A stretch of DNA of 64,000 nt from Petrolisthes cinctipes (Eukaryota; Arthropoda; Malacostraca; Decapoda; Porcellanidae), in contig JAWQEG010000075.1 in assembly GCA_033782935.1 (NCBI GenBank), positions 16,001 through 80,000 on the forward strand. Direction: 5' to 3'. Of the stretch, positions 7,222 through 59,555 are shown in pieces. The first letter of the stretch is position 1. The number at the start of each line of letters is the position of its first letter. Under the pieces are notes generated by a model. That model was not told where the DNA came from and searched no databases. It saw only the letters and a program-made list of their open reading frames with translations. The position numbers and the translations under genes were made by a program.

Positions 7222-10200
7222 TTACCGCGGAGGGGCGCATCCCCTCATGAAGCCAACTCTCCTTACGATGTCATCCATGAGGAGGCGCACTTGAGTTGCT
7301 CCTGTGGTGACTTGGTCTTCGCCGGTCTGCACTCGGGGTCTCCTTCTTAAGCTAGCTGTGTTTGGGCACTCCAGAAGGTAGTGAATGAGTGGCTCTTCAG
7401 TCCTGTTTCCACAGTGCTGACACTCTTCTGACGCTTCTTTTAAAATGCAGTAACGCATCGTTACGTATCCCATCCTGATCCGATGTAAGTTGGTCCAGTC
7501 TCGGTGTGGAACTTTGGTTGTGAGGGGTATCAATCCTGTGGCTAGGATGTACCACCTGGCAGCACGTGAGGTTGCAGAGACGTCTCTAAGTCTGGAAAGT
7601 ATTCTATCCTTGACTGCAGCCCTGGCCATGCTCTTGGTTTTCTTAAGGCTGGGAGGGATTTTGAAGGTCGGAGAAGGTCCTCTGGCTGCCAATTTGGCTC
7701 CTTTGTCAGCCCTCTCATTTCCATCTACTCCAACATGAATTGGGATCCAACAGATTGTGATGTGCCTCCCTTGTCCTTGTACCCTTTGTGACGTGGCAAG
7801 TACATGGGTCGTCAGTTGGACATTGTCTTCCGGGATGTACTTCCTGAGGTTCTGCAGTGCCGTCATTGAATCTGAGTAGATGAGGATGTGCTTCTCTGCC
7901 CTTCTCTCCGCATGCCTCATAGCCTGGGCTATTGCTGCGAGCTCAGTCTGAGTGGAGCTGCAGTGGTCAGAGGTCCTCCAACCTAAGACATTGTTGCCAA
8001 GGACAAAAGCGGCACCCGCCCTGCCACTCTCCGGGTCCACGGAGCCGTCAGTGTAGTAGACGGCTGTGTCTTCGTTAATCCTGCTGCCCATCACTCTGTT
8101 GGCATGCTGGAGGAGTTCATTTTCACTGAGGTCTTTCTTGCCTCTCGGAAGCCGAACTATCTCTGTTTTAATGGCTGGTGTGGTCCACGGTGGTGGCACA
8201 TGGTACTCACCGGCTGGTGAGTCTGTACCCTTCTTCAAGAGAAGTTTGACGTTGAGAAGGCTGTGTACTGTGTCTGCCACACTTCGGATCCAGGTCCCTC
8301 TCTTTGCACTCTGCATGTCCTTTCTCAGTTCTTTGATGACCTCACTTTGGAAAGGATTATCCCTATAGTGATGTATGGTTCAAGCTACCACACATGACAC
8401 TACATAGTCGATTCTGTCTTGGATAAAACTCAGACCAGATTCATGCTGCATTACTTCTGTTTTGGTCCATACTGGGGCACCATATATGGTCCTCAGAGCT
8501 TTGTTCTGGATGCATCCCAGCTTGTGTGCTAAGGTCTTTGGTAAACCTGGAAGCACTATGGCAGCATAATCGATGATCGATCGGATGGCTTGTTTGTAGA
8601 ACATTGTGAGAGTTCTGTTTGATGTGCCGCTGTCATAGGACATTAGGGCCCTCAAGGCTGCAAGACGAGATTTAGTCCTATCCTGCAGGTACTCTATCTC
8701 TCTTTTCCAACTGAAGCTGTGTGTTATCCAGATTCCTAGGTACAGTTAAGTTGACACCCATTCAAGTCGGGTGTCCTGTATGTGCAGATGCTCTTGGGGA
8801 GCTCTCCCCCTGATGAACATTGCCTTTGATTTCTCTCTGGAGATTTTCAAACCCAGGTTTTTGCATTGCCCCTCAATCAGGTCGAGACTTTTCTGAGCTC
8901 TTTCCATATTTCGCCCCCGAATCAGAAGTGCCAGATCGTCAGCATAGCTGATCAGTTTGACACCAGCTGGCAACTGGAGTTGCACTAGCTCTTCCATAAG
9001 AATATTGAAGAGGGTTGGGCTTAAGACCCCTCCCTGCGGAGTTCCGTTTTCTAGGGACTGGTAAGTCGATACTCGACCTTGATACTTGACCCTGGCGGTG
9101 CGGTCCAAGAGGTAGTCCTGTACCCATGCGAGCATTCGGCCTCTAACTCCCCTTTCTGCCAGTGCTTCTAGTATGGCATGAGAGTTGGCTAGTTTGAAGG
9201 CTTTTTCTAGGTCGAGAAACACGACAATGGACTTTCGGTCTTTTACCGTGCTCAGTAGAGATGCAATGGCAGTTGTGGTCTCAGTTCTCTTGAAAAAGCC
9301 AAAGAGATGTGGATGCCATGGACCCAGCTTCCACAAGAGTCGGTTGAGCACCATCCTCTCCATGGTTTTATAGAGACAGCTCATCAGAGCTATTGGTCTG
9401 TACTTGCCCTTCTCTTTGGGCTTTGGAATGGGTAGAATATCTGCCTTTTTCCAAGCCAGGGGCAATCTTCCTACACCACATGACTCATTCATGATGGTTA
9501 TGAGGGCTGCGTGACCCCCAGTACCTAGTCCGGAAATAATTGAGTATGTTATGCCATCATTTCCGGGGGCCATGTTTTTGCTCTTTTTCCTGGCTCTTAA
9601 GAGTTCATCCAGCGTGAACGGTCCATCAGTCTCGTCTCGCTCGAGGACTGCTTCATCTATTTTCTCTTGTCTCGTGTCACGGAGCTGTTGTAGGCAGTCC
9701 TGTATTTCCATCGGGATATTAGTTGTTGCTGCCCTTGCTGCAAAGTTGCTATTAAGCCTTTCAGCATCTTCGAGGGGGTCGAGACATGCAGGCGAACGAG
9801 TTGCCATCCTGCCTGTAGCTATATTGATGTTTCTCCATATCTCTCTCAGTTTGCTGTGTTCGTCAATGGTCGAGCACCACTCATACTATTCCTCTGCTTT
9901 CACTCTTCTCGAGATTTCCTTGGCATGCCGTATCACCTCCCATAATAGAGACAGTGATTCAGCAGTGGGGTTTCTCCTGTGAAGTTTTCTGTGTTTGTTG
10001 ATTCTCCTGTTCTGTTCCCTAATTTCGTCACAGTAGAACCAGTAGTCCCGGTGTCTGGCACCGGTCCTCTTTCTTGGGATGGATTTCTCAGCTGCCTTGT
10101 TAACTGCATTAGTGAATGCTGTGAGATTGGCGTCAAGGTCTCCTCCCATTTTGTTTTCGTTGTGCCAACCTTTTAGGTGGCTCTCGAACTTCCTCCAGTT

Positions 10201-10884
10201 GGCCTTCTTGGTGTTCCATCCTGGGAGTGGTCTGGGAACATAAGATCTGGTTCTTAATTCCAGGCTTATCCTGATGGCATAGTGGTCACTGGTGAGGGTA
10301 GGGTGGATCCACCATTTCGAGCAGTGGTCGAGGTCTCTAGATACAAAGGTCAGGTCAAGCCTGCCTCCTGCTTGGTGTGTGGGGACACCAGAGTTGAGGA
10401 GACAGATGTTGTCTGTTTCCTCCATCACCATGGCCAGGTGTCGCCCCACATCATTGTTATGTTGTGAGCCAAGAAAGCTGTGGTGGGTGTTGAGATCACC
10501 CCCAATCAGCAGGGAGTGTGGTATGCTGAAGAGCTCAGAGAGATTCAGCTCCCACCTTTGGCTTCTGTATATGTTGTATACTTGGAGGTCTGTGGATCCT
10601 GTGTGGATCTTGATGGCCAGGACGTCCACTCCTTCCCTGCAAGGTGTTGGCTGTTCGAGGAGTTCCTGAGGGATGCTTCTCTTAATGTATGTGGTCAGAC
10701 CTCTTTGCTCATCACTATGTGGTAGTGTGTAGTGTTCAAATCCTGGGAGTTTAGGTGTTGTCTCGTCAGTAGTGAGAGTCTCCTGAAGGAGGACTATATC
10801 GATCTCTTCCTTGACAACAGCTTCTTTTAGGGAGTTGATGTTGCCACGGAGTCCACAGATGTTCCACTGTAGGATCCTCAGCAT
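7222..10884 (-). pseudogene. LINE-1 ORF2: endonuclease, reverse transcriptase, RNase H
   Basis: One reading frame of about 1,221 codons runs from ATG at 10884 to 7222, with only three in-frame stops: TAG at 9886-9888, TAA at 8746-8748 and TGA at 8380-8382. No frameshift is needed. The endonuclease opens with LRILQWNICGLRGN and has the QET motif, GGDLNTHH and a TSDHYA motif. RT has PIALMSCLYKTMERM, FLDLEKAF, GTPQGGVLSPTLFN and the catalytic SYADDL near 8937-8954. RNase H starts with YYTDGSVDPESG and includes WIPIHVGVDGNERAD. A cysteine/histidine cluster (CQHCGNRTEE...HYLLEC) closes the protein. It would nick target DNA and copy its own RNA. The start overlaps the ORF1 stop as ATGCTGA, the arrangement expected for coupled re-initiation. 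Confidence 0.9.
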
Positions 10885-11378
10885 ACTGTGACATCTGACT
10901 CAGAATCTGTTTCCTCATCCACGCCTGGTCTTTGCCTGGGACAAGGTGGGAAGGCCAGTGCCCTTCTAGGTGCCTCCATTTTTTCTGGTTTGACAGGCGT
11001 GCAGTGTTCTTCAGGGGCATGGGCATTTGCCTGTTGGGCATTCCTGTCGGGCTGTTCCTGTTGTGGTACCAGCACGTTCTGGATGGCAGTAGATACCTCT
11101 TCTGCCATTCTCTTGATACCGAGGGAGGCTAGAACCTTCCCAATGACGTCTGCCAGCATGCTCTGCGTCAGCTGGACTACCTCCTCCCCGTTTTGGCTCC
11201 TCTCAATCACCACTTCCTCCTGTGGTGGTGGTGGTGGGAGGGCAGCAGGGTTGTTTGTATTTTTTTTTTTCTTCCTTGGTTTTCTTTTCTTCTTGGGAGA
11301 GGTGGGCAGTTCATCACCTCTTTGTGTCTCCTTTACCTCCGCCTTGTGGCAGCTAGAATCATATATCCGATACAAGCA
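10878..11378 (-). pseudogene. LINE-1 ORF1, C-terminal part
   Basis: The readable 165 residues contain a lysine/arginine-rich run (KKKRKPRKKKKN), a proline run and then a helical segment with VVQLTQSMLADVIGKVL. It stops at TGA 10880-10878, overlapping the ORF2 start. There is a stop just upstream of the readable part and no ATG, so the N-terminal nucleic-acid-binding region is missing or decayed. No zinc knuckle is left. It is assigned to ORF1 by position and by the overlap with ORF2. Confidence 0.65.
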
Positions 11379-11575: not shown

Positions 11576-11640
11576 TTTTTTATTGCTTCTCTATGATATT
11601 GTCATACCTATATATGTCCGCATGTCTCGCTGAATAAAAA

Positions 11641-11906
11641 ATGGGGGGTGCTGATGGTGTAATGGTTAGCACACTCGCCCAGCACGCAAGAGGTCCCGGG
11701 TTCGATTCCCAGGTCAGTGGGATTGTTGGACAATTTTCCCAGCCCCCTATGTCCCTGTTCACCTAGCAGTAAGTAGGTACCCAGCTGTAAAAATAAGGAT
11801 AACAACCTTGTAGGCTGGGGGAAGATGTGTTGATGTAACAAGACTGACTGCCTTAATGACCAACACCATGAGTCGATAGGCATAAAGCCCTAAATCTTCT
11901 TTTGAA
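11641..11906 (+). mobile_element. SINE-1, tRNA-derived, near full length
   Basis: The head resembles a tRNA gene with A box TGGTGTAATGG at 11655-11665 and B box GGTTCGATTCC at 11699-11709. The anticodon-loop region CCAGCAC would carry AGC (Ala). The body contains CCTAGCAGTAAGTAGGTA at about 11763-11780, which I recall as a block common in decapod SINEs (from memory). The 3' module reads CTTAATGACC, then GAGTCGATAGG, then CATAAAGCCC (11850-11890). No acceptor stem closes, so it is not a tRNA gene. Transcription would be by RNA polymerase III. Confidence 0.8.
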
Positions 11907-11924
11907 TAAAATGGTGAGGGGGGA

Positions 11925-13137
11925 GTCTACATCCAGCCATGGCACTGTCAACACCTACTGGCGACCACACCCCTTCCCCTGCCGACCATCTTGTTGGCAG
12001 AGTGAAGTGGTTTAACCTCTGACTTGCGAGATTATTTCTTCCACAGGAGGGGCATCCTTCTCTCTGCTGCCACCACCTCACCACCATCACTGGGGGACGA
12101 AGAGGAGGTGTCCTTCACTGTGGAGGAAGGGAGGAAGGGCGTGGAGGCTACCAACGTAGCTGGACCTGATAGTGAGCAGGTCCTAGGCTCACTCCATGCC
12201 CGTGGGAGGAGGACGGCTAACGCCCAACCACCACAGCGACGGCAGAAGCAGGCAGACATCGTCACCGTCTGCACCAAAACTGCTGTTGCCTTAGCTGCAG
12301 AAGGGCTAGGTCGTCTTTCCGACCTCCTCCTGGACATCTTCAGTAGAAATGGCTTAACACCAATTGCCATTTCTCCTGATCTTCAACCACCCACCACCAC
12401 CACTAAGAAATGAAGCAGCAAGCTGGCACGATGGAAAAGGTGCAAAGCTGATGCACCAATAACCCCGCCTATGGCCCACCCCCGTCGCTGATTGATGTTG
12501 CCTTGTTCACTCAACAGGGGTAATGTTGGGCAGGCACCACCACCATCACCATTGCCACTACCACCACCTGAGCCTGCCCAACAAGACCCTGTGTCGGAGG
12601 AGGACACTGACACCAGTTCCTACTCCACCTCCAACACCACCACCACCACCACCAAAGATGACTCCACCAACGACAACATGGACCTGGAGGATGAATGAGG
12701 ATGGCAGATGGCGGGGAGGAGGAAGAGGAGGAGAAGAACAGACAGTCCACCAACACCACCACCACCTACTGTCACCATAGAGTGGTGGATGACTGCTTCT
12801 CCTCGCCTTGACCTCTTCTCCCAGTACACCTCACGCTACCGGGACCCTGACGTCTTCAAAGTTTGGGAGGTTTGGAGGAACAGAGCAACACCGTCTGCTC
12901 GTCCACTCTCCAAAACATCAACGCAACACTCCGTAAGGAGATATTGCCTTCATTAGTGATGTGGGCAATACTTTAACGGTTTTGGCACCCCTTCGGCCCC
13001 AGACACTAGCTTTTAGTTCTTCAACTGCCCCCCTTTTCTTTCTATTTCCTTCCTGCTTGCTGTTTCACCTCTCTATCACCGTTTTCTGGTGCTATATGAC
13101 CTCGCTGTTACGGCGCCTAATATCAATCAATCAACAC
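11925..13137 (+). mobile_element. CSD-1: cold-shock-domain element with a LINE-2-like 3' tail
   Basis: It starts with GGGGGGAGTCTAC as CSD-2 does (GGGGGGAGTCTAC before 56355). A broken coding region runs to about 12985. The 3' UTR then ends in GCTATATGACCTCGCTGTTACG, described here by parts: TATATGACC, GCTGTT, GCGCC, followed by ATCAATCAATCAA at 13126-13137. LINE-2a and LINE-2b end with the same ordered words and an AATC repeat. This makes CSD-1 look like a retroposed unit moved by LINE-2-type machinery. Confidence 0.7.
11939..12985 (+). pseudogene. CSD-1 coding region, cold-shock domain protein, broken
   Basis: ATG at 11939 opens MALSTPTGDH and reaches VKWFN, but about 25 bp that would encode the RNP1 motif (KGYGF) are deleted and a stop follows. 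The frame resumes with RDYFFHRRGILLSAATT (RNP2 region) and EEVSFTVEE, then GVEATNVAGPD. Downstream are an AVALAAEGLGRLSDLLLDIF helix, a proline-rich stretch, an acidic/serine/threonine region, and AGRRKRRRR. The C-terminus is longer than in CSD-2, continuing with LRKEILPSLV. Stops and frameshifts at about 12030, 12410, 12697 and 12890 make it non-functional. Confidence 0.75.
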
Positions 13138-13345
13138 AACAAATCTCCTGCTGATATCCAACACGCAGAGGAGGAGGAGACACTAACACACACACACACA
13201 CACACACCTTGACACACACACACACACACACACCCTGACACACCCGTACACTTTTCCACATACATACAAGCAATCACTCTATAAATATATCGCCTTAATG
13301 ACCATTAAGAAGTCGATAGGCATAAGGCATAATAATTAACAACAA
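13138..13345 (+). repeat. AC microsatellite and a free SINE-1-type 3' module
   Basis: AC repeats occupy about 13189-13232. At 13292-13330 the sequence reads GCCTTAATGACCA, then AGTCGATAGG, then CATAAGGCAT and AACAACAACA. This is the same 3' module as SINE-1, without a SINE head. It could be the tail of a severely 5'-truncated SINE or of a second CSD-type unit. Confidence 0.6.
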
Positions 13346-29810: not shown

Positions 29811-30491
29811 TGTTACGGCCCCTCCATTCGACCCATGTCAACGCCTGGGGAAATGACTAAACGACCATAACACTACTTCAGGTGTTGACCAATCAGGAAG
29901 TTTCCTCTCTTCTCTCATCCACCAATCAGGAGAGGACAAGCCAGTTTTGGCGGGAAACGGTTGATATAAAGCTCGGGGAATCGGCCACAGTCGACAGTCT
30001 TCCTCACCAGTCTCAGTCTCAGTGTGTTTTCCTGCCTCATACCTGCTTGGTGTGGGGTAGCCCTGTCTACCAATCATCATTCGTCTGTGTGTCTGCTGAC
30101 CTCTGCCACGCTTGTCATTACATACGTAATTATGGTTATTAGCACTTGCCCCTCTCCTCTATGTATCTGTTGTAGCCATAGGTTGTTTGTGTTTTGGGTA
30201 ATTGTATTTATTAAGATTAGGTGTGTAAGTGTATTTTGTCATTGGGTTACGTGTATTTTGTTATTAGGTTATGTGTAATTATTTTCTGGTTTCTATGATT
30301 AATTGTTTTAGGAGATTGTAAGGCATTGGATTGTAACCATATACTCCTCCCTATTAAATTGTTTAAGCATAATTTATATAACCTCTCTTCATGCCCTATT
30401 ATCCTTTGTGAATCACTTAAGTTATCCGTTCTTACACTTAATGTTATGCCTATTCTCGGGCATGAACTGAAATAATTCACTGGTCATAACA
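29811..30491 (+). repeat. Gypsy-B2 5' LTR (681 bp)
   Basis: It starts TGTTACGGCCCC and ends TGGTCATAACA. GATATAAAGC at about 29968 is a likely TATA-type promoter. Short frames inside it on both strands repeat in the 3' LTR and are not genes. Confidence 0.95.
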
Positions 30492-32830: not shown

Positions 32831-33511
32831 TGTTACGGCCCCTCCATTCGACCCATGTCAACGCCTGGGGAAATGACTAAACGACCATAACACTACTTCA
32901 GGTGTTGACCAATCAGGAAGTTTCCTCTCTTCTCTCATCCACCAATCAGGAGAGGACAAGCCAGTTTTGGCGGGAAACGGTTGATATAAAGCTCGGGGAA
33001 TCGGCCACAGTCGACAGTCTTCCTCACCAGTCTCAGTCTCAGTGTGTTTTCCTGCCTCATACCTGCTTGGTGTGGGGTAGCCCTGTCTACCAATCATCAT
33101 TCGTCTGTGTGTCTGCTGACCTCTGCCACGCTTGTCATTACATACGTAATTATGGTTATTAGCACTTGCCCCTCTCCTCTATGTATCTGTTGTAGCCATA
33201 GGTTGTTTGTGTTTTGGGTAATTGTATTTATTAAGATTAGGTGTGTAAGTGTATTTTGTCATTGGGTTACGTGTATTTTGTTATTAGGTTATGTGTAATT
33301 ATTTTCTGGTTTCTATGATTAATTGTTTTAGGAGATTGTAAGGCATTGGATTGTAACCATATACTCCTCCCTATTAAATTGTTTAAGCATAATTTATATA
33401 ACCTCTCTTCATGCCCTATTATCCTTTGTGAACCACTTAAGTTATCCGTTCTTACACTTAATGTTATGCCTATTCTCGGGCATGAACTGAAATAATTCAC
33501 TGGTCATAACA
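32831..33511 (+). repeat. Gypsy-B2 3' LTR (681 bp)
   Basis: It is the same length as the 5' LTR and differs by one visible substitution (GAATCACTT in the 5' copy, GAACCACTT here). The flank CACT repeats the left flank. Confidence 0.95.
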
Positions 33512-49645: not shown

Positions 49646-49985
49646 CAAGCAAGTCTTAAAATCTTTCTTGATGCGACACTCGTGTCGAACAGACGTGTTT
49701 TCTGGCTGCAGCTAGTTTTTGCACGTTTGACAAGAGTTGTAGCACTCTAGTGGAATTAAATAAAGATAGTGAGGTGTCATTTTCCTCCTTACCCTTAGTT
49801 AGGTACAGTAGGTTTCTGTACCTATCCCCCCACTGATCGCTCTGGGGTAAGGAAAACCTGAGACGCGGCCACCTCGTAGTGTCTTGAGAGGTTGTTGTGA
49901 ATGTAGATTTCCTCCCTGGGTAGCGTTTACTTCCCTTGTTTTCCGGCGTGTGAACACTCACTTTCCCCGTAGGGGGAAGTGAGTC

Positions 49986-51090
49986 ATGATGGAACCCCCT
50001 CCCGCCCCTCCCCCCATAGGGGGTAGGGGTCCTGACCCGGCTCAACCCTCGATAAGGCCTGAAAACGTAAAGTTTGTGACGATTCGCGTGTCTGGGACAA
50101 CTCCTATAACAAGTGTCAACCACTTCATTATTAAGAAGGTGATTGACTATTGTTGTGGCGAGGTGGATCAGGTCAAGAAATTGTCGAATGGATCCGTCCT
50201 TGTTAAGATGATTAATGCTGGCCAAATCAGCATGTTTGTTCGATTCCTGAGTCCAAAAACTCGTGCAGGGGAGTTGTCTTCTGTAGGGAGTCCATGAAAT
50301 GAGAGATCAGGATGTCATTGCTGCACGTCGCACTTCACGTTTGGAGCATGGCGAGAGAGTTAAGACAGCTTTGGTTATTTTGACTTTTGGTAACGCTTCA
50401 CTACCTGAATTTATTCGAGTTGGATATGAAATTTGTAACGTAACACCATATATTCCGAACTCCTTGAGATGTTTTAATTGCCAGAAATTTGGAAATGGAA
50501 TGAATTTTTGCCGCTCTGTTGTCATGCTGATAAAGATTGTACTTCTGAGGCTGAGAAGTGCTTGAATTGCATGGGTACCCAACCTTCTTCCTCTCAGGCA
50601 TGTCCCGTGTGGGAGGTGTAGAAGGAGATCTGTGCGGTGAAGGCTACTTCTAGTGTCTCGCCCGACCCGTGATGAAGACAATCTGTATGCAGACTGAACC
50701 TGTTCCTGGACTACCACCACTTTCTGAGATTTTCTCTAAGATTTCTGACCCAACCCCCTCTTCATCATCTTCTTCTTCTACTGAACATGTTTCATGCAAC
50801 CTTTAATCTATCTCTTCAACCCCTGATGTATCTTCACTGCTGTACTCTGATGCTATTACTACTTCTCCAAAACAGAATGGCAAGAAGAACCGTAGGAACG
50901 AATTCAACATGACCCCCCTCAAGAAGCAACCCAACTCTCACGTGATGGCCCAGCCTACCCCCGTGAGAGGAGCAAATAGATCTCGCTCCTCGGAAGGGAA
51001 CATGGAGGTGTCCATCGACAACCGCCGATCGATGCCCGGTGGTGGAGGTACTCCTCCAAAGAATAAGAAGAAGGCTAAGTACTCTTAGGC
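49986..51090 (+). pseudogene. LINE-5a ORF1: RRM-like region and zinc knuckle
   Basis: ATG at 49986 opens with a proline-rich stretch, then FVTIRVSGTTPITSVNHFII and VLVKMINAGQISMFVRFL, an RRM-like pattern. A stop at 50295 and a frame change follow. The next frame has ALVILTFGNASLPEFIRVGYE and CFNCQKFGNGMNFC, a knuckle in which the expected histidine is asparagine. A serine-rich tail ends KNKKKAKYS with a stop at 51087-51089. It is the RNA-binding partner of ORF2. Confidence 0.7.
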
Positions 51091-51118
51091 ACTTCATTAA
51101 ACCCTTTAAACCTCCATC

Positions 51119-53186
51119 ATGTATAATATTCTCCAGTGGAATTGTAGAGGTATTACACCCGTGTAATGCACGTGTAATGCACGTGTAATTACACGGGTAT
51201 GCACCCGTGCTAGATCAACACGTGCCTCAGGTAGTTTGTCTACAGGAGACGTTATTGAGAGATTAGCCTGATCCTCAACTTTTTAAACACTACCATTAGT
51301 ACAGGAAACATGACGGTCATGAGGTAGCTATTTACGTTCACAAGTCAATACCCCATTCAGCAGTGGGGCTGAATTCTCCTCTGGAAGCCGTCGCATGCAG
51401 AGTGAAATTCGGCAAAACGTACCTGACAATTTGTTCTCTGTACTGTCTACCACTTGGTCGCATTGATGATGATGATTTTACTTCACTTTTTGATTCATTG
51501 CCCGGTAGAAAAATAATTCTTGGCGATATTAACGTCCATCACCATCAATGGGGTAGCTTGAGGTCGGATGGACGTGGGAATCAGATTGCTGACCTTTTAT
51601 TGCTTTCCAACTTGTGTTTACTGAATGATGGTCGTGCGACTCGTGTAGATGATCATACCGGCCAAACCACATGCATTGATTTATCTTTATCTTCCCCCGG
51701 AATACTAACAGACATCACTTGGGCAACATATGATGACTCTCTGGGAAGCGATCACTTACCCATCTGTCTTACTTATTCATGCGGCAACTTTCGGCCACCA
51801 CCACCAATACCAAAATTTTACACGCAGCCGAGGCTGCTATTCCTAAATCTCCTACAACCCACGATAGCCGAAGAGTTCCTTGGTGGACACCAGAATGCCG
51901 ACAAGCACTCACTAAGCGTAATAGGCGATACAGGATTTTTGACAGAGAGCCAACACAAGCTCACTTCATTGCTTATAAGGCAGCAAGGGCTGAGGCGAGG
52001 AGAACAATTAAGTCAGCAAAACGAGACTCCTGGAGGAGTTCGTGTCCACAGTGAGTCGTACCACCCCATTAGGTCAGGTCTGGTCCACAATTAATGTTTT
52101 TAATAATACAGTAAATACACCCGCACGCCCATCACCACCCTTGAGGTGGGCGGTAACATCATCGACGATCCCGTGGACAATTTGTTGACGTAAGCAGCTC
52201 AGCTAACTACGACCCCCGTTTTCAAGACCACAAACGGGAGGCTGAGCTGCGAGAGATAGACTTTGCCACAGAAGACGTAAATTCTAGCTACAACAAAGAG
52301 TTTACGATTAACGAACTTCTCCTCACCCTGAAATCCTGTAAAGGCTCCAGTCCTGGCCCCTCAGCCATTATGTACGGTATGATTCAGCATCTTACTCAGG
52401 GCAAACCTGAGTAAGCTGTTAGCGGTGTTTAATGAGATTGGGACGTCTCGAACGTTTCCAAACTCATGGCACTACGCACGTCTGCTCCTCATCTGCAGCT
52501 GTACCGCTCCCCCAGCTCATAATTGGCCCTCATCCACTCCAAGTCATCCACTCCTTCAAGCTTCTCAGCATCACTGTGGATGACCAATTATCATGGAAGC
52601 AACATGTCGCTAGGATGGTCAAGGTAGCCTCATACAAGCTGTACATGCTGCGCAGACTCAGGTCTCTGGGGACTCCAGCAGGAGATTTGAAGGCAGTTTA
52701 CACCTCTTTCATATTACCCTCACTGCTGTACACCTCCCCAGCGTGGTCTTCATTTCTGAACAAAACGCAACAACAATAGCTTGAGAAGGTTCAGAAGAGG
52801 GCATGCAGAGTCATACTCGGCCCTGCCTACACCAGCTGCAATAATGCCCTCACCACCCTAAGTCTGCCCAGGCTGACAGCCATGTATGAGCAAGCCCTTA
52901 GCAAGTTCGGGGAAGGCTTGCTACGTAACCCACGCCACCGTCACCTCCTACCACCTGACGCCCCCACACCAGCCAGGGCTACCCGACACCAAAACAAACT
53001 GGTGCCGCTAAGAACCCCTCGCACTGACAGCTATCGCCAGAGCGCTATTCCTACTTTAGTGCGAAAAATAAACACCTAGACTAGTATGTCTCCAAGTTGT
53101 AGCCTATAGATCTTAGAATTAATAATAATGTAATCTTCCCCTCTGTAAATTTTCAGTCTCTGACTGCCATATAAAATAAATCGTTA

Positions 53187-53239
<53 letters not shown>

Positions 53240-55462
53240 GTCGTACCGATACCTAAACGAAATGGTCACCTTACGAATCCCAGTTCGTTTCGTCCTATTG
53301 CGCTGACTGACTGTTTATGTAAGGTCATGGAACGTAGGGTAAATAAAAGACTGGTTTTTGTTTTAGAGGCGAAGAATGTGTTAAATGTTCAACAGAGTGG
53401 ATTTCGTCAACATCGGTCCACTCTAGACCATTTAATGCATTTGAAGCATTGCATTGCCGAGACATTTGCCTGGAAACATTTCATGATAAGTATATTTTTG
53501 GATATTCAAAAAGCATACGACATGACATGGCGTAACGGACTACTACAGAAACTTTACGCCTATGGCTTAAAGGGTAATTTGCCTATATTTATCAGTAACT
53601 TCCTTGCTGACAGGACATTTTCTGTCAGGTTGCCCTATAACATAACATCTGACATATTTGTCCAAGAAAATGGGGTGCCCCAAGGAAGTGTACTTAGCCC
53701 GACTCTTTTCAGTATTGCTATTAATGATATTCTGTCATCAGCTTCTGTTCCCCGAAACCTTAAATACTCACTGTATGCTGACGATTGTGCATTGTGGTAC
53801 TCATCCCCCAATGTTCAGTTTTCGGCGAGGCAGATTCATTTAGCACTTGACTCTGTCCATCAGTGGGCCTCGTAGTGGAGTTTTAAGTTTTCAGTTCCTA
53901 AGTGTGTCGGCATTGTTTTCACACGTAAACGTAGAGTACCTGATTTGCATATTACTTTAGATAATCAGCAGATACCTTTTCAAAATTCAGTAAGATTCCT
54001 AGGCCTACATTTTGACAAAAATAGGAAAAGTCATATTAATTATTTGCTTGTTTGTTGTAGAAAGAAATTAAATGTCCTTAAATATTTATCTGATAAATCA
54101 TGGAGAGCTGACAGAACATCTTTATTGATGGTGTATAAGTCCCTCATACGTTCAAAGCTTGACTATGGCGCACAGGTGTATGGGTCGGCGTCTGAGGCGA
54201 CACTCAAGAGATTGGATGTATTTCAGAATGTATGTTTACGATTATGTCTTGGAGCTCTTCGATGTACTCGTGTGGAGAGGATGGAAGTAGAGGCTAATAT
54301 TCCTCCCTTCTGTATTCGTCGAGACCACCTATTGTTATCATACGGTATTACCACCTACCGAAAACGATCGCTGGCCATCCAGGCTTGTGGGATCCTCATG
54401 CAGTGGGAACATCTGCTGCATGGGGCCCTCAAGTCAGTGGCTGTGCGGCTTCACTTCCTCCGTCAAGCGCTAGGGTACGACCTGTCTAGTGGGGATCGAC
54501 GCATCATGTTAAATATAGCGCCCTGGGAGTCTAGTCCCACCACTGTTATTACTGACTGGCTCCCCACCGCCAAGTCCCAGTCGCCGGAGGTGGATGTCAG
54601 ACAATTGTTCCGGAAGATCCTCATAAGAAACCTAGCATCATTCCACTTGTACACTGATGGCTCTAAGATGGATGAATGCGTGGGTGCAAGTGTATGGTCA
54701 GCGGAGTGTCGTCTTAGATACCGGTTGCCCGTATATGCATCTGTGTTTACTGCAGAACTATTTGCCATAGCCAGAGCTATAGATTTTGCTGAAAATTCAA
54801 ATTACGACAGTTTTGTCATTTTTTCGGATTCACAGTCAGCCCTTCAGGCAATTAAATCTTGCAAAACGACTAAAAATGTAATCCTGGGCAATATTATCAA
54901 TAAATTACATGTGTCTGCTAAGTCCTTCTCTCTGATCTGGGTGCCTGGTCATTGTCGAATCTTCGGTAGCGAACAGGCTGACTTACTTGCAAAGTCTGCG
55001 GTAGAACTTGAGGAGATGTGGGAAGTCCCTCGGGAGCTACAGTCGTGTCTCTCTTTCGGTAAGAAATCAATAAATCTTCTGTGGCAAATTCAGTGGACCG
55101 ACCTGGCTATACCCACCATCAAGGCCACAATAGAAGACTGGCCCTCAGCATATCGCCAACATCGCCGTGAGGAAGTAGTACTTGTAAGATTAAGAATGAA
55201 CAGCACACTTCTAACTCATATGTTGCCTTACATCAATCATAGTGTCCCACCACAATGTAACACCTGTGGTGTGGTGCTATCAATCAGTCACATCATTTTG
55301 CACTGTAATAGGTATGTTGTGGAGCGTCAACCTCTAGCTGTCTATTGCAGGGTAAATGAAGTCCCCATGAATCTGAACTCTGTCTTAGGTGATGGGGATT
55401 CTGATGTGACTGATAAATTGATGACTTTCTTGAAAGAGACCAGACTACTCAGAGAGTTGTGA
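51119..55462 (+). pseudogene. LINE-5a ORF2: endonuclease, RT, RNase H
   Basis: ATG at 51119 opens MYNILQWNCRG. A small palindrome at about 51156-51198 breaks the frame, and CLQETLL follows. The endonuclease has LGDINVHHHQWGS, CIDLSLSSPG and GSDHLPICL. RT reaches FNEIG and PNSWHYA at 52477, is split by LINE-3b, and resumes at 53241 with SSFRPIALTDCLCKVMERR. FLDIQKAYDMTW, GVPQGSVLSPTLF and YADDCALW (53773-53796) follow. A stop occurs at 53873. From 53945 to 55462 the frame is open for 505 codons, covering the thumb, RNase H (LYTDGSKMDECVGASVW, FSDSQSALQAI, WVPGHCRIFGSEQAD) and the end CNTCGVVLSISHIILHC. Confidence 0.9.
52478..53239 (+). mobile_element. LINE-3b: 5'-truncated LINE-3 copy inside LINE-5a RT
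   Basis: The readable part (thumb and C-terminus) has SWKQHVARMVKVASYKLYML, GTPAGDLKAVYTSFILPSL and VQKRACRVILGPAY, parallel to LINE-3a. It ends RKINT with a stop, AATAAA near 53174, and an ATT tail of about 17 units (53187-53239). A single stop at 52778 interrupts the frame. LINE-5a coding resumes right after the tail. Confidence 0.85.
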
Positions 55463-55520
55463 CTTAGATTTTATTATTATTTATGTGTGAGATGAGTATT
55501 CTTTTTAATGTACATATTTA

Positions 55521-56334
55521 TATTTATATCTATGTCTTGACGCCTCAATTCACAAAAGAAGTGTCCACAAATGAATCAATTCCATGCATTTCAATCACCC
55601 GCCAACTGGCGTCCCTCCCATCAACCAACGCCACTCTCACTCATATACCTATCAACTCCATCCGTTAACCTTAGCCTACTCCTGGTATGAATTTTCCCAT
55701 CCATCTATTCACTTCACTCTCATAAACATCTTAACCAACCAATCAATCCTCATGTGCTCCACATGACTGAACCACCTCAAGATGTTCCCTTTCACACTCT
55801 ACAGTACATCCATATACACACCATATAACACACATACCTCTACGTACGTCAATTGATTACACCATGCTGCACCACACACACACCTCAGATAAATTATATC
55901 CATAAACATTCGTATGTGTACATTCATATGTACAATAATTATCAGGACAAAAGTTAAATGTATTTTAAATATATATATTTATTTGTGTATATCAGATTTA
56001 TCTTCTATATACATTTATTTTTATATGTGAGATTAGATTGCTAAAATAGTAAATTTTTGTATTGTTTTGCCTTTGAATTAGCATAATGATGAAAGATTAC
56101 AAATGAGGTATGCGAGGAGGTGCTTTTCCTGAGGCAATTCTCGCATACTGATGTGTCCTTCATTGTTCACATGAGCCAGCATCTATGACTGGAGCGAACT
56201 ACTGGTTTGGCATATTTGTTTACATGTATGTCATCCTGGGGTCACAAGGTCATAGATGCTGGAGTTGCAAGCCTAATACCCCCATCAGAGGTGATGGCTT
56301 TTTAAAGTGAAGTTAAAAAAAAAGAAAGAGAGAA
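55521..56334. other. Unassigned AT-rich spacer between LINE-5a and CSD-2
   Basis: No gene is visible. A pair of inverted 14-bp arms, CCAGCATCTATGAC (56171-56184) and its complement near 56249-56264, could form a hairpin with a loop of about 70 bases. A purine run precedes CSD-2 at 56315-56345. Confidence 0.4.
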
Positions 56335-57398
56335 GGCAGGGGGGAGTCTACAACCAGCCATGGCCCTGACAACACCTACTGCCGACCACACCACTTCTCC
56401 TGCCGACCGTCTTGTTGGCATGGTAAAATGGTTTAACCATTTGAAGGGCTATGGCTTCATAACCTCTGACGAGAGAGATTACTTCGTCCACAGGAAGGGC
56501 ATCCTTTTCTCTGCTGCCACCACCTCATCACTATCACTGGAGGACGGAGAGGAGGTGTCCTTCACTGTGGAGGAAGTGAGGAAGGACGTGGAGGCTACCA
56601 ACGTAGCCGGACCTGATGGTGGGCAGGTCCTCGGCTCACTCCATACCCATGGGAGAAAGACGGCTGACGCCCAACCACCCCAGCGACGGCAGCAGCAGGC
56701 AGACATCGTCACCGTCTGCACCAAGACTGCTGTTGCCTTAGCTGCAGAAGGGCTAGGTCGTCTCTCTGACCTCCTCCTGGACATTTTCAGGAGAAATGGC
56801 TTACCACCAACAGCTATTTCTCCTGATCTACAACCACCCACCACCACCACCACCACCAAGAAACGAGGCAGTAAGTCAGCACGACGTGGGAGGTGCAGAG
56901 AGGAAGCGCCACCACCACACCCTCCGGCCCACCCCTGTCGCCGGTTAATGCTGCCTCGCCCACTCACCCGGGCAAACAGCGGGAAGGCACCACCACCACC
57001 ACCAACATCACCACCACCACCACCACCACTACCTGAACCTTCCGTACGAGACCCCAAGACGGAGGAGGACTCTGACACTAGTTCCTCCTCCAACACCAAC
57101 CGCAACACCAACGACACCAGTGACAACATGGACCAGGAAGATGGAGTGGAATGGCAGACGGCCGGGAGGAGGAAGAGGAAGAGGAGAAGAAGTTGGGACA
57201 GCCAGTTATCAGAACAACAGCTGCCTGACACCACCAAATATTGGATGACAGCTTCTCCTCTCCTCGACCTTTTTCAACAACACATCTCCCGGCGACGTGA
57301 CCCCAACACCTTCCAGGTTAGAGAAGAGTGAACCACTCCCATAAGATGACCTTATAAGTACCAGCCAATACAAAATAAATGACCACTATGAGTGATAG

Positions 57399-57440
<42 letters not shown>
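56335..57440 (+). mobile_element. CSD-2: cold-shock-domain element with an open frame and poly(A)
   Basis: It starts around GGGGGGAGTCTAC at 56340 and ends with AATGACCACTATG, GTGATAGGC and about 37 A residues (57403-57440). The 3' words match the SINE-1 module. Poly(A) and the lack of introns indicate retroposition. No target duplication was identified, because the 5' flank is purine-rich and the 3' flank follows a long A-run. Confidence 0.7.
56360..57331 (+). CDS. Cold-shock domain protein of CSD-2, 324 codons, intact frame
   Basis: Residues about 16-85 form a Y-box-type cold-shock domain: GMVKWFNHLKGYGFI (RNP1), RDYFVHRKGIL (RNP2), then GEEVSFTVEE and VEATNVAGPDG, the end typical of animal Y-box proteins. 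Residues 105-145 contain a helical AVALAAEGLGRLSDLLLDIF. A basic KKRGSKSARRGR patch, a proline-rich region, an acidic serine/threonine stretch and WQTAGRRKRKRRR follow. The last motif, W-x-T/V-x-x-RR(K/R), is common in LINE ORF1 proteins (from memory). The C-terminus is shorter than that implied by CSD-1. It is expected to bind single-stranded nucleic acid. Host Y-box genes are usually longer at the C-terminus with RG-rich islands, absent here. Confidence is high for the domain, lower for the function. Confidence 0.85.
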   Translation: MALTTPTADHTTSPADRLVGMVKWFNHLKGYGFITSDERDYFVHRKGILFSAATTSSLSLEDGEEVSFTVEEVRKDVEATNVAGPDGGQVLGSLHTHGRKTADAQPPQRRQQQADIVTVCTKTAVALAAEGLGRLSDLLLDIFRRNGLPPTAISPDLQPPTTTTTTKKRGSKSARRGRCREEAPPPHPPAHPCRRLMLPRPLTRANSGKAPPPPPTSPPPPPPLPEPSVRDPKTEEDSDTSSSSNTNRNTNDTSDNMDQEDGVEWQTAGRRKRKRRRSWDSQLSEQQLPDTTKYWMTASPLLDLFQQHISRRRDPNTFQVREE

Positions 57441-57446
<6 letters not shown>

Positions 57447-57481
57447 GGCAGTCACTTCGCTACAAGACAGTGAACAGGTAT

Positions 57482-58930: not shown

Positions 58931-59555
58931 TACCAGCCATACCCCAGTAAACACCTCTACCAACAGACACCACTTCCCCTGCTGACTGTCTTGTTGGCCG
59001 GGTGAAGTGGTTTAACTATTTGAAGGGCTATGGCTTTGTTACCTGCGACGAGAGAGATTACTTCGTCCACAGGAAGGGCATCCTTCTCTCTGCTGCCACC
59101 ACCTCACCACCATCACTGAGGGAAGGAGAGGAGGTGTCCTTCACTGTGGAGGAAAAGCGTGGAGGCTACCAACGTAGCCGGGCTTGATGGTGGTAAAGTC
59201 CTAGGCTCACTCCTTGCCCGTGGGAGGAAGACGGCTGACGCCCTACCACCGCAGCGACGGCAACAGCAGGCATACATCGTCACCGTCTTCCAGTTCTGAA
59301 AGGAATGGAGGCGGTTTGAGCCTCCTTTAAGGAAAACATCATTCGCCGCTTCCAAAACAACAACAACATCAACAACGAAGGTGGTTCAATACCACCAATA
59401 ATACAACTATTGCCACAATAACAACAACAACTACTACTACAACTACTAATACAACAAATACTACTACAACTACTAATACAACAACTACTACTACTACTTT
59501 TGTCTTCTAAAGTGTTTGATGCCTTAATACCACGAAAGGGGTGATAGGCAAAAAT
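58931..59555 (+). mobile_element. CSD-3: degraded cold-shock-domain element
   Basis: Homology to CSD-2 begins around CCAGCCAT at 58931, but the start codon is ATA. The domain reads RVKWFNYLKGYGFVTCDERD, YFVHRKGILLSAATT and GEEVSFTVEE, then shifts frame at about 59155. Homology resumes with GLDGGKVLGSLL and RRQQQAYIVTV (about 59185-59290). An internal deletion leads to CAA/ACT-type simple repeats at 59355-59500. The end has GCCTTAATACCACG and GTGATAGGCAAAAA (59521-59554), the shared 3' module. Confidence 0.75.

What the first reader, a model, noticed from the sequence alone, without database searches (positions are those of the whole stretch)
56335..57440. A retroposed element family encoding a Y-box-like cold-shock domain protein
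Three dispersed copies (11.9, 56.3 and 58.9 kb) encode the same architecture: cold-shock domain with RNP1 (KGYGFI) and RNP2 (YFVH), helical segment, proline-rich and acidic linkers, and a basic WQTAGRRKRKRRR patch. One copy is open over 324 codons and ends in poly(A). LINE ORF1 proteins are nucleic-acid chaperones, usually RRM/CCHC or L1-type. A cold-shock domain would be a different solution to the same job. The element could be ORF1 of an unseen LINE or an ORF1-only parasite comparable to HAL1. I do not know of a described family with this layout.
Basis: partly seen in the sequence, partly recalled or inferred. Interest (0 to 1): 0.85.

Follow-up and report, generated by a model that had tools for sequence, protein, structure and literature searches.

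The report
Promoter-seeking cold-shock-protein retroposon family
A short copy-and-paste DNA element in this animal genome carries one gene, for a cold-shock-type nucleic-acid-binding protein, has no copying enzyme of its own, appears to borrow that of a larger element with the same tail, and often lands at what look like transcription start points, so that a new copy may find a ready-made promoter.

Summary
The 323-codon ORF at 56360-57331 has a Y-box-like cold-shock domain and belongs to a retroposon family: 126 matches in the 1.48-Gb genome, 102 without internal stops. Independent copies share one plan of about 1.1 kb: leader, one ORF, 3' hairpin, poly(A), target duplications of 7-12 nt. In 18 loci read, no EN-RT frame continues the element. 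The same hairpin, with double changes in 6 of 8 pairs, ends EN-RT-RNaseH LINEs and a tRNA-like SINE; the window copy sits directly behind such a LINE, whose own ORF1 is of CCHC type. So this is an ORF1-only parasite rather than that LINE's ORF1. dN/dS over the ORF is 0.34-0.50. In 15 of 24 target families a TATA box lies about 25-40 nt upstream, in sense orientation (shuffles: mean 0.98, maximum 5); in nine loci the target duplication starts 21-25 nt after it, where transcription should start. My literature searches found neither feature described. The host Y-box gene, LINE 5' ends and total copy number could not be tested.

The parts
56329..56339 (+). 5' target duplication AGAGAAGGCAG of the window copy c2
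   Evidence: the same flank in 20 of 20 fetched top-tier copies
56340..57441 (+). retroposon copy c2: leader GGGGGAGTCTACAACCAGCC, ORF, 3' tail, poly(A)
56360..57331 (+). CSD protein ORF, 323 codons plus stop
56417..56611 (+). cold-shock domain, residues 20-84, Y-box-like
   Evidence: PF00313 51.4 bits; best PDB sequence YBX2, 53.1 bits
56678..56794 (+). predicted helical segment, residues about 107-145, nearly invariant among copies
   Evidence: AlphaFold2 secondary structure of low confidence
57152..57190 (+). basic patch WQTAGRRKRKRRR, residues 265-277
57377..57400 (+). 3' tail ending GATAGGC, a decayed form of the family hairpin, followed by poly(A)
57441..57451 (+). 3' target duplication (its first A cannot be told from the poly(A))
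11645..11899 (+). tRNA-like SINE with the same kind of 3' hairpin, at a TATATATG...TGAATAAA site
   Evidence: tRNA likeness by eye, ARAGORN reports none
11917..13330 (+). copy c1: full-length start, 26-nt deletion over RNP1, stops, a foreign-looking stretch before the tail at 13292-13328
58933..59550 (+). copy c3: N-terminal part only, frameshift, tail at 59520-59549, joined to a truncated LINE
50050..56299 (+). decayed LINE directly 5' of c2: CCHC-type ORF1 remnants, EN, RT (53180-53872), RNase H (53876-55459), tail AAGCCTAATACCCCCATCAGAGGTGATGGCT at 56269-56299
   Evidence: start of the LINE approximate

Best explanation
A non-autonomous, protein-coding retroposon family of about 1.1 kb. SHOWN: many copies, mostly open; a constant 5' leader; no EN-RT frame belonging to the element in the loci read; a 3' hairpin shared by structure with LINEs and a SINE of the same genome; poly(A) and short target duplications; insertion about 21-33 nt downstream of TATA boxes, in sense orientation, in most target families read; a coding sequence under purifying selection. 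INFERRED: a LINE with an EN-RT-RNaseH ORF2 recognises the 3' hairpin and copies the RNA by target-primed reverse transcription; the machinery is aimed at Pol II start sites, by contact with promoter factors or by preferring melted DNA; a copy placed just behind a start site is transcribed from the captured promoter and needs none of its own; the protein (CSD, helix, basic tail) binds and chaperones the element's RNA, the job that LINEs give to their ORF1 protein.
For: 126 matches, 102 rows without internal stops. In 18 independent loci: intact ORFs of 335-372 codons, poly(A), duplications of 7-12 nt in 15 (14 by script, one by eye), no common downstream frame. Hairpin: 63 of 64 cells paired, 6 of 8 pairs changed on both sides, covariation score not reached in 500 shuffles. 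LINE tail directly 5' of the element at c2, L025 and five further flanks. dN/dS 0.34-0.50 over the whole ORF. TATA in 15 of 24 target families against 0.98 in shuffles; duplication starts 21-25 nt after TATA in nine loci of seven target families; no antisense TATA on the other side in 18 loci.
Against: 9 of 24 target families lack a TATA match at that place; among loci with a clean duplication L028, L031, L032 and L035 lack one. No transcription start was mapped. c2's own tail has lost half of the outer stem although c2 is a full-length insertion. The linker within tier 2 has dN/dS 1.19, and the CSD part of c1 against c2 is not distinguishable from 1. The LINE's 5' end and its own target site were not read directly. 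LINE frames lie within 1.5 kb downstream at five of 18 loci (L024, L025, L026, L032, L033), though beyond poly(A) and target duplication. No binding or mobilisation was tested.
Confidence: 0.8

Rival explanations
1. Processed pseudogenes (retrocopies) of one host Y-box-related gene, copied by LINE machinery that takes any polyadenylated mRNA.
For: Intronless copies with poly(A) and short target duplications; a Y-box-like domain; AATAAA upstream of the poly(A) in c2.
Against: Copy number and intactness; at least two lineages of intact independent copies besides the c2 segment; mosaic divergence, 4.3% against 25.7% in two halves; a 3' hairpin shared with LINEs and a SINE by compensatory change; the architecture outside the CSD is not that of Y-box proteins (recalled).
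Confidence: 0.08
2. The CSD ORF is ORF1 of an autonomous LINE, and the copies read are internally deleted derivatives.
For: LINE frames lie within 1.5 kb downstream at five of 18 loci; the element ends in a LINE-type hairpin.
Against: Those frames begin beyond the element's poly(A) and target duplication and enter different parts of LINEs. The copies share one length plan and end. The LINE with this hairpin has a CCHC ORF1.
Confidence: 0.07
3. The TATA pattern does not reflect aiming at start sites: the endonuclease prefers a DNA sequence or composition that happens to occur behind TATA boxes, or a few promoter-bearing repeats were multiplied after insertion.
For: Some targets are LTR-retrotransposon or other repeat promoters, and some target families recur.
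Against: Counting was per target family after clustering of flanks. The duplicated sequences differ widely (ACCCTGG, CTCACTC, TCTCACAGTC, TGAATAAACC, GACTGAACTC, TTTTAGGGCAG) while their distance from TATA is nearly constant.
Confidence: 0.15

Closest known systems
HAL1 (half-LINE, ORF1-only derivative of L1; recalled, only listings seen)
   Same: Non-autonomous, one ORF for a nucleic-acid-binding protein, no ORF2, LINE-type poly(A) and target duplications.
   Different: HAL1's ORF is the LINE's own ORF1 (recalled). Here the LINE with the matching tail has a CCHC ORF1 and the ORF carries a cold-shock domain.
SINEs that share the 3' tail of a LINE (recalled kind; one such SINE at 11645-11899 in this window)
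   Same: 3' hairpin shared with LINEs, poly(A)-type end, same target site as the LINE.
   Different: No tRNA-like head; codes for a protein of 323-372 residues in the copies read.
Y-box / cold-shock-domain proteins
   Same: PF00313 and the Y-box-type extension behind the barrel.
   Different: The rest of the protein is proline-rich, acidic and basic blocks, not the arginine-rich repeats of Y-box proteins (recalled), and the gene is a mobile element.
LINE ORF1 types as listed in PMC4120745 (passages seen)
   Same: Presumed role: binding and chaperoning element RNA.
   Different: The types there use RRM, CCHC, PHD, coiled coil/CTD and esterase; 'cold shock' occurs 0 times in that text.
Retrotransposons aimed at promoters: yeast Ty elements at Pol III genes (listing PMC5911963), Tf1 at Pol II promoters (recalled); trypanosomatid non-LTR elements that accumulate where transcription starts and carry the Pr77 promoter (abstract of PMC4748587)
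   Same: Insertions at or near places where transcription begins.
   Different: Ty and Tf1 are LTR elements with integrase (recalled); the trypanosomatid elements carry their own promoter. Here insertions lie 21-33 nt behind a TATA box in sense orientation, with the marks of target-primed reverse transcription.

Membership tests
HAL1-like ORF1-only element | No ORF2 within the element | tested here: met
   18 of 18 loci read
HAL1-like ORF1-only element | ORF derived from ORF1 of the mobilising LINE | tested here: not met
   The LINE with the matching hairpin has a CCHC-type ORF1; no CSD there by eye, no Pfam match
HAL1-like ORF1-only element | Coding sequence under purifying selection | tested here: met
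   dN/dS 0.34-0.50 over the whole ORF, with exceptions in the linker (1.19 within tier 2)
SINE | Pol III (tRNA, 7SL or 5S) head | tested here: not met
   The element begins GGGGAGTCTACATCCAGCC-ATG; ARAGORN reports no tRNA in the window
SINE | 3' tail shared with a LINE | tested here: met
   tails chosen by eye
Processed pseudogene of a host gene | Intronless, poly(A), target duplication | tested here: met
Processed pseudogene of a host gene | Close parent gene with introns in the same genome | not tested
   PF00313 search of the genome did not complete
Processed pseudogene of a host gene | Neutral decay (dN/dS near 1, frames broken) | tested here: not met
LINE ORF1 | EN-RT ORF follows within the same element | tested here: not met
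   18 loci; other copies not read
Y-box protein | Cold-shock domain of Y-box type | tested here: met
Y-box protein | Place within the Y-box clade in a tree | not tested
   No host or other metazoan Y-box set could be fetched
Start-site-targeting retroelement | Insertions at a fixed distance from core-promoter elements | tested here: met
   15 of 24 target families with TATA; spacing in nine loci
Start-site-targeting retroelement | Experimentally mapped transcription starts at the insertion sites | not testable with these tools
   No transcript data held

The most novel reading that the evidence does not exclude
A non-LTR retroposition system of LINE, SINE and a CSD-coding parasite that integrates into the melted DNA of Pol II preinitiation complexes. 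The target duplication corresponds to the open bubble, about -9 to +3 around the start. The cold-shock domain, a single-strand binder, guides the RNP to that bubble or keeps it open, and each new copy takes over the promoter in which it lands.
Probability: 0.35. Interest if true: 0.95.

Novelty: new variant of a known kind. Interest (0 to 1): 0.85.

Why it matters
A retroposon appears to have taken up a host-type Y-box cold-shock domain for the job that LINEs give to RRM/CCHC or L1-type ORF1 proteins. It also points to a non-LTR machinery that finds Pol II start sites by position rather than by sequence. That would give a short element an answer to its hardest problem, getting a promoter, and a natural system in which target-primed insertion at transcription starts can be studied. 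Since at least some targets are promoters of LTR retrotransposons, it may be a case of transposons living on transposons.

Tried and rejected
LINE ORF1 idea: rejected for the copies read (18 loci) and because the LINE with the matching tail has a CCHC ORF1. A 2292-aa open frame near a LINE copy (C1911) proved to be an assembly gap of N. RNase H followed by CSD at 58.3-59.3 kb: a junction of a truncated LINE and copy 3, not a fused gene. Protein database: no relative of the CSD element although the database holds crustacean LINE proteins; low-complexity words may have crowded the first search, and the second had only 44 candidates. Viral contigs: none. Structure: two AlphaFold2 jobs with mean pLDDT 37 and 47, used only for secondary structure; no fold search was made. 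Window-level test of tail similarity against random stretches was weak (5, 5 and 19 of 2000 scored as high for c1, c2 and c3, the tails themselves being among the possible hits) and was replaced by the pair count, for which I chose 8 tails by eye; c2's decayed tail, the 19.4-kb SINE tail and the LINE tails of L071, L075, L091, L093 and L103 were not in it. CCAATCA/TGATTGG: 8 of 24 families against 0.6 in shuffles, but promoters carry CCAAT boxes anyway, so this does not show that the CSD binds them. TSD spacing: I dropped L033, whose 'duplication' is poly(A); the call's own last line says 10 loci, starts 21-33, ends 28-43. L027's duplication was set by eye. TATA count: 13 of 58 flanks were set aside because another element's tail or poly(A) precedes them; one of them, L106, lies in the TATATATG promoter family. 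One search's two bins give 12 and 4 hits, one search gives 15 of 24 families; I use 15.

Full report
WHAT WAS CLAIMED AND WHAT IS THERE. The window copy (c2) is an ORF of 323 codons plus stop at 56360-57331. Pfam finds a cold-shock domain at residues 20-84 (PF00313, 51.4 bits, cut-off 27). Among PDB sequences the best match is Y-box protein YBX2 (53.1 bits), ahead of CspA (40.3 and 40.2) and Lin28B (28.7); the extension after the barrel that aligns with Y-box proteins is present (EATNVAGPDGGQVLGS). c2 starts GGGGGAGTCTACAACCAGCC-ATG, ends in 41 A's and is flanked by AGAGAAGGCAG on both sides. Copy 1 (11917 on) has the same start but a 26-nt deletion over RNP1 and three later stops; copy 3 (58933 on) holds about the first 115 codons with a frameshift.

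THE FAMILY IN THE GENOME. The window lies in a 1.48-Gb assembly of 9385 contigs. A search with the c2 protein gave 126 matches, 124 candidates scored of 37,099 in the first look; 102 of 126 rows list no internal stop (my count). By identity to c2 there are 22 rows at 94-100%, 78 at 80-89% and 26 at 73-76% (my count). The top tier is not a set of insertions: 20 of 20 fetched members (L001-L020) have the same 5' flank, and 13 of the 16 contigs with the closest copies of the LINE next to c2 are among theirs. So c2 is one insertion carried along in a multicopy segment. The 18 loci read from the other two tiers (L021-L038) have intact ORFs of 335-372 codons and poly(A), with target duplications of 7-12 nt in 15, one of these (L027) set by eye. 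L025, L033 and L038 gave no clean duplication by script. Two pairs of loci share a target family (L026 and L029, L027 and L034) but differ in leader.

NO ORF2. In the up to 1.5 kb downstream of those 18 loci there is no common frame. LINE frames do lie there at five of 18: ORF1 at L024 and L033, EN-RT at L025, EN at L032 and, by eye, an RT/RNase H part at L026. They begin beyond the element's poly(A) and target duplication and enter different parts of LINEs. At L030 another CSD element follows. The element is thus a self-contained unit of about 1.1 kb in the loci read.

SELECTION AND MOSAICISM. Nei-Gojobori dN/dS over the whole ORF is 0.44 between tiers 2 and 3, 0.50 within tier 2, 0.34 within tier 3 and 0.39 between c2 and tier 2; the basic-plus-helix part is 0.14 and the C-terminal part 0.31 between tiers. 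Against this, the linker within tier 2 is 1.19 and the helix within tier 3 is 0.72 on very few changes. Between the decayed c1 and c2 the value is 0.52 (95% 0.36-0.74), with the CSD part alone not distinguishable from 1 (0.74, 0.34-1.78). Divergence is mosaic: tiers 2 and 3 differ by 4.3% in the first 470 nt and by 25.7% in 560-970, which suggests template switching or conversion between lineages.

THE 3' HAIRPIN AND THE PARTNER. Tier-2 and tier-3 copies typically end TGCCT-TAAT-ACCC-loop-GGGT-GAT-AGGCA and poly(A); L026 and L028 have damaged forms. The LINE directly 5' of L025 ends GGCCT-TAAT-GACC-loop-GGTC-GAT-AGGCC, then poly(A); its frame contains RNase H and resembles the window LINE. Relatives of the window LINE (L062) end AAGCC-TAAT-ACCCC-loop-GGGGT-GAT-GGCTT; the tRNA-like SINE at 11.65 kb ends TGCCT-TAAT-GACC-loop-GAGTC-GAT-AGGCA; a further LINE-like tail precedes L074. 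On eight such tails, 63 of 64 cells are standard pairs, 6 of 8 pairs change on both sides, the covariation score is not reached in 500 shuffles, and sliding the partner by one column brings the paired cells to 33-41%. I chose the tails by eye and left out c2's own decayed tail, which flatters the percentage paired. The LINE's own ORF1 is another protein: a frame of 385 residues, open at the end of L033, with three CCHC knuckles by eye and no Pfam match, and remnants of the same kind in the window. The two best database relatives of the LINE's ORF2 that carry an organism's name are from Meganyctiphanes and Petrolisthes, so the host is probably a crustacean (inference).

THE TARGET. Thirteen follow another element's tail or poly(A): six a LINE tail of the L025 type (L025, L071, L075, L091, L093, L103), four a second LINE-like tail (L074, L078, L079, L081, near-identical flanks), two a CSD element (L030, L033), one plain poly(A) (L106). 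The other 45 form 24 target families. In 15 of 24 there is a TATA match at -60 to -41 relative to the ORF's ATG, about 25-40 nt upstream of the element; first-order Markov shuffles of the same flanks give 0.98 on average and 5 at most in 500; per flank it is 32 of 45; the strict motif TATAWA is in 13 of 24 there against 2, 2 and 0 of 24 in three control bins. 9 of 24 families have no match there. In nine loci with both a TATA match and a clean duplication (seven target families), the duplication starts 21-25 nt and ends 28-33 nt after the first TATA base; L028, L031, L032 and L035 have clean duplications and no such TATA. Animal start sites lie about 30 nt after that base (recalled), so the duplication would span roughly -9 to +3. 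None of 18 has a TATA box in the opposite orientation on the other side. The duplicated sequences differ widely. Some targets are LTR-retrotransposon promoters: L024 lies downstream of a Gypsy-type RT-RNaseH frame; L036 and L037 lie upstream of a DUF7041 and a weakly SCAN-like frame (E 0.0024, below cut-off). The LINE shares the target: the sequence between LINE poly(A) and CSD element at L025, L071, L091 and L103 (TGACTGAACAG, GACTGAACTCGG, TGACTGAACAG, TGACTGAATAGG) is the kind that follows the TATA box at L072 and L034, where the CSD element inserted directly. In the window, the SINE and then copy 1 stand at a TATATATG...TGAATAAA site of the family used by L026, L029, L082, L083, L086, L087, L098, L100 and L106, some of which are duplicates of one another.

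HOW IT MOST LIKELY WORKS. A host promoter, often that of another mobile element, drives a transcript that begins within the target duplication and runs through the CSD ORF to the poly(A). The CSD protein is made and, by analogy with ORF1 proteins, coats and remodels the RNA. The LINE's reverse transcriptase recognises the 3' hairpin and copies the RNA at a nick made near a Pol II start site; the new copy again stands behind a TATA box in sense orientation, so it is expressed. The structure of the element, the shared hairpin and the places of insertion are observations; transcription, binding, recognition and nicking are inference. Whether the machinery recognises promoter factors or melted DNA cannot be told from sequence.

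WHAT IS KNOWN. The ORF1 types in PMC4120745 (12 passages seen) use RRM, CCHC, PHD, coiled coil/CTD and esterase; 'cold shock' occurs 0 times there. Searches for cold-shock domain with retrotransposon, ORF1 and LINE (two papers on host factors against human LINE-1, listing), with non-LTR retrotransposon (one paper on dinoflagellate retrogenes, listing) and with transposable element and crustacean (none) showed nothing of this kind. Searches for start-site or TATA targeting showed nothing of this kind either; the nearest is an abstract (PMC4748587) saying that trypanosomatid non-LTR elements accumulate where polycistronic transcription starts and carry a promoter. Subscription papers and repeat databases are not held, so absence from print is not shown.

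VERDICT. A real retroposon family, with intact and near-identical copies that point to recent activity (inference): a new variant of the known kind 'protein-coding parasite of a LINE', with a new ORF1-like domain, and with a start-site preference that, if it holds in a full census, is the more remarkable part.

Noticed in passing
window about 50050-57450; L001-L020; L039-L054: LINE plus CSD copy c2 form part of a duplicated segment present about 20 times on other contigs, 96-100% alike; what multiplied it is unknown.
   Followed up: partly
window 29811-30491 and 32831-33511: A 681-bp direct duplication, 99.9% identical, 3 kb apart, looks very recent.
   Followed up: no
window 11608-11640 and L026, L029, L082, L087, L098, L100: A repeat with tandem CTGATTGG motifs and a TATATATG/TTTATATG box is a recurrent landing site for the SINE and the CSD element.
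   Followed up: partly
window 12960-13290: A stretch ending in ATCAATCAATCAA inside the 3' part of copy 1 looks like a LINE 3' end inserted there.
   Followed up: no
window 7222-11378, minus strand: A LINE with long EN-RT-RNaseH frames and a proline-rich ORF1 remnant, of a family other than the one behind c2.
   Followed up: no
L030, L033 and neighbouring contig C883: CSD elements stand in head-to-tail arrays at one target site, each with its own poly(A) and copy of the target sequence.
   Followed up: partly
L074, L078, L079, L081; window about 49650-49710: A further LINE-like 3' end, GGCTTAATGACC...GGTTGATAGCC, has a larger loop on the same hairpin; it suggests a LINE clade with this tail in several forms.
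   Followed up: partly
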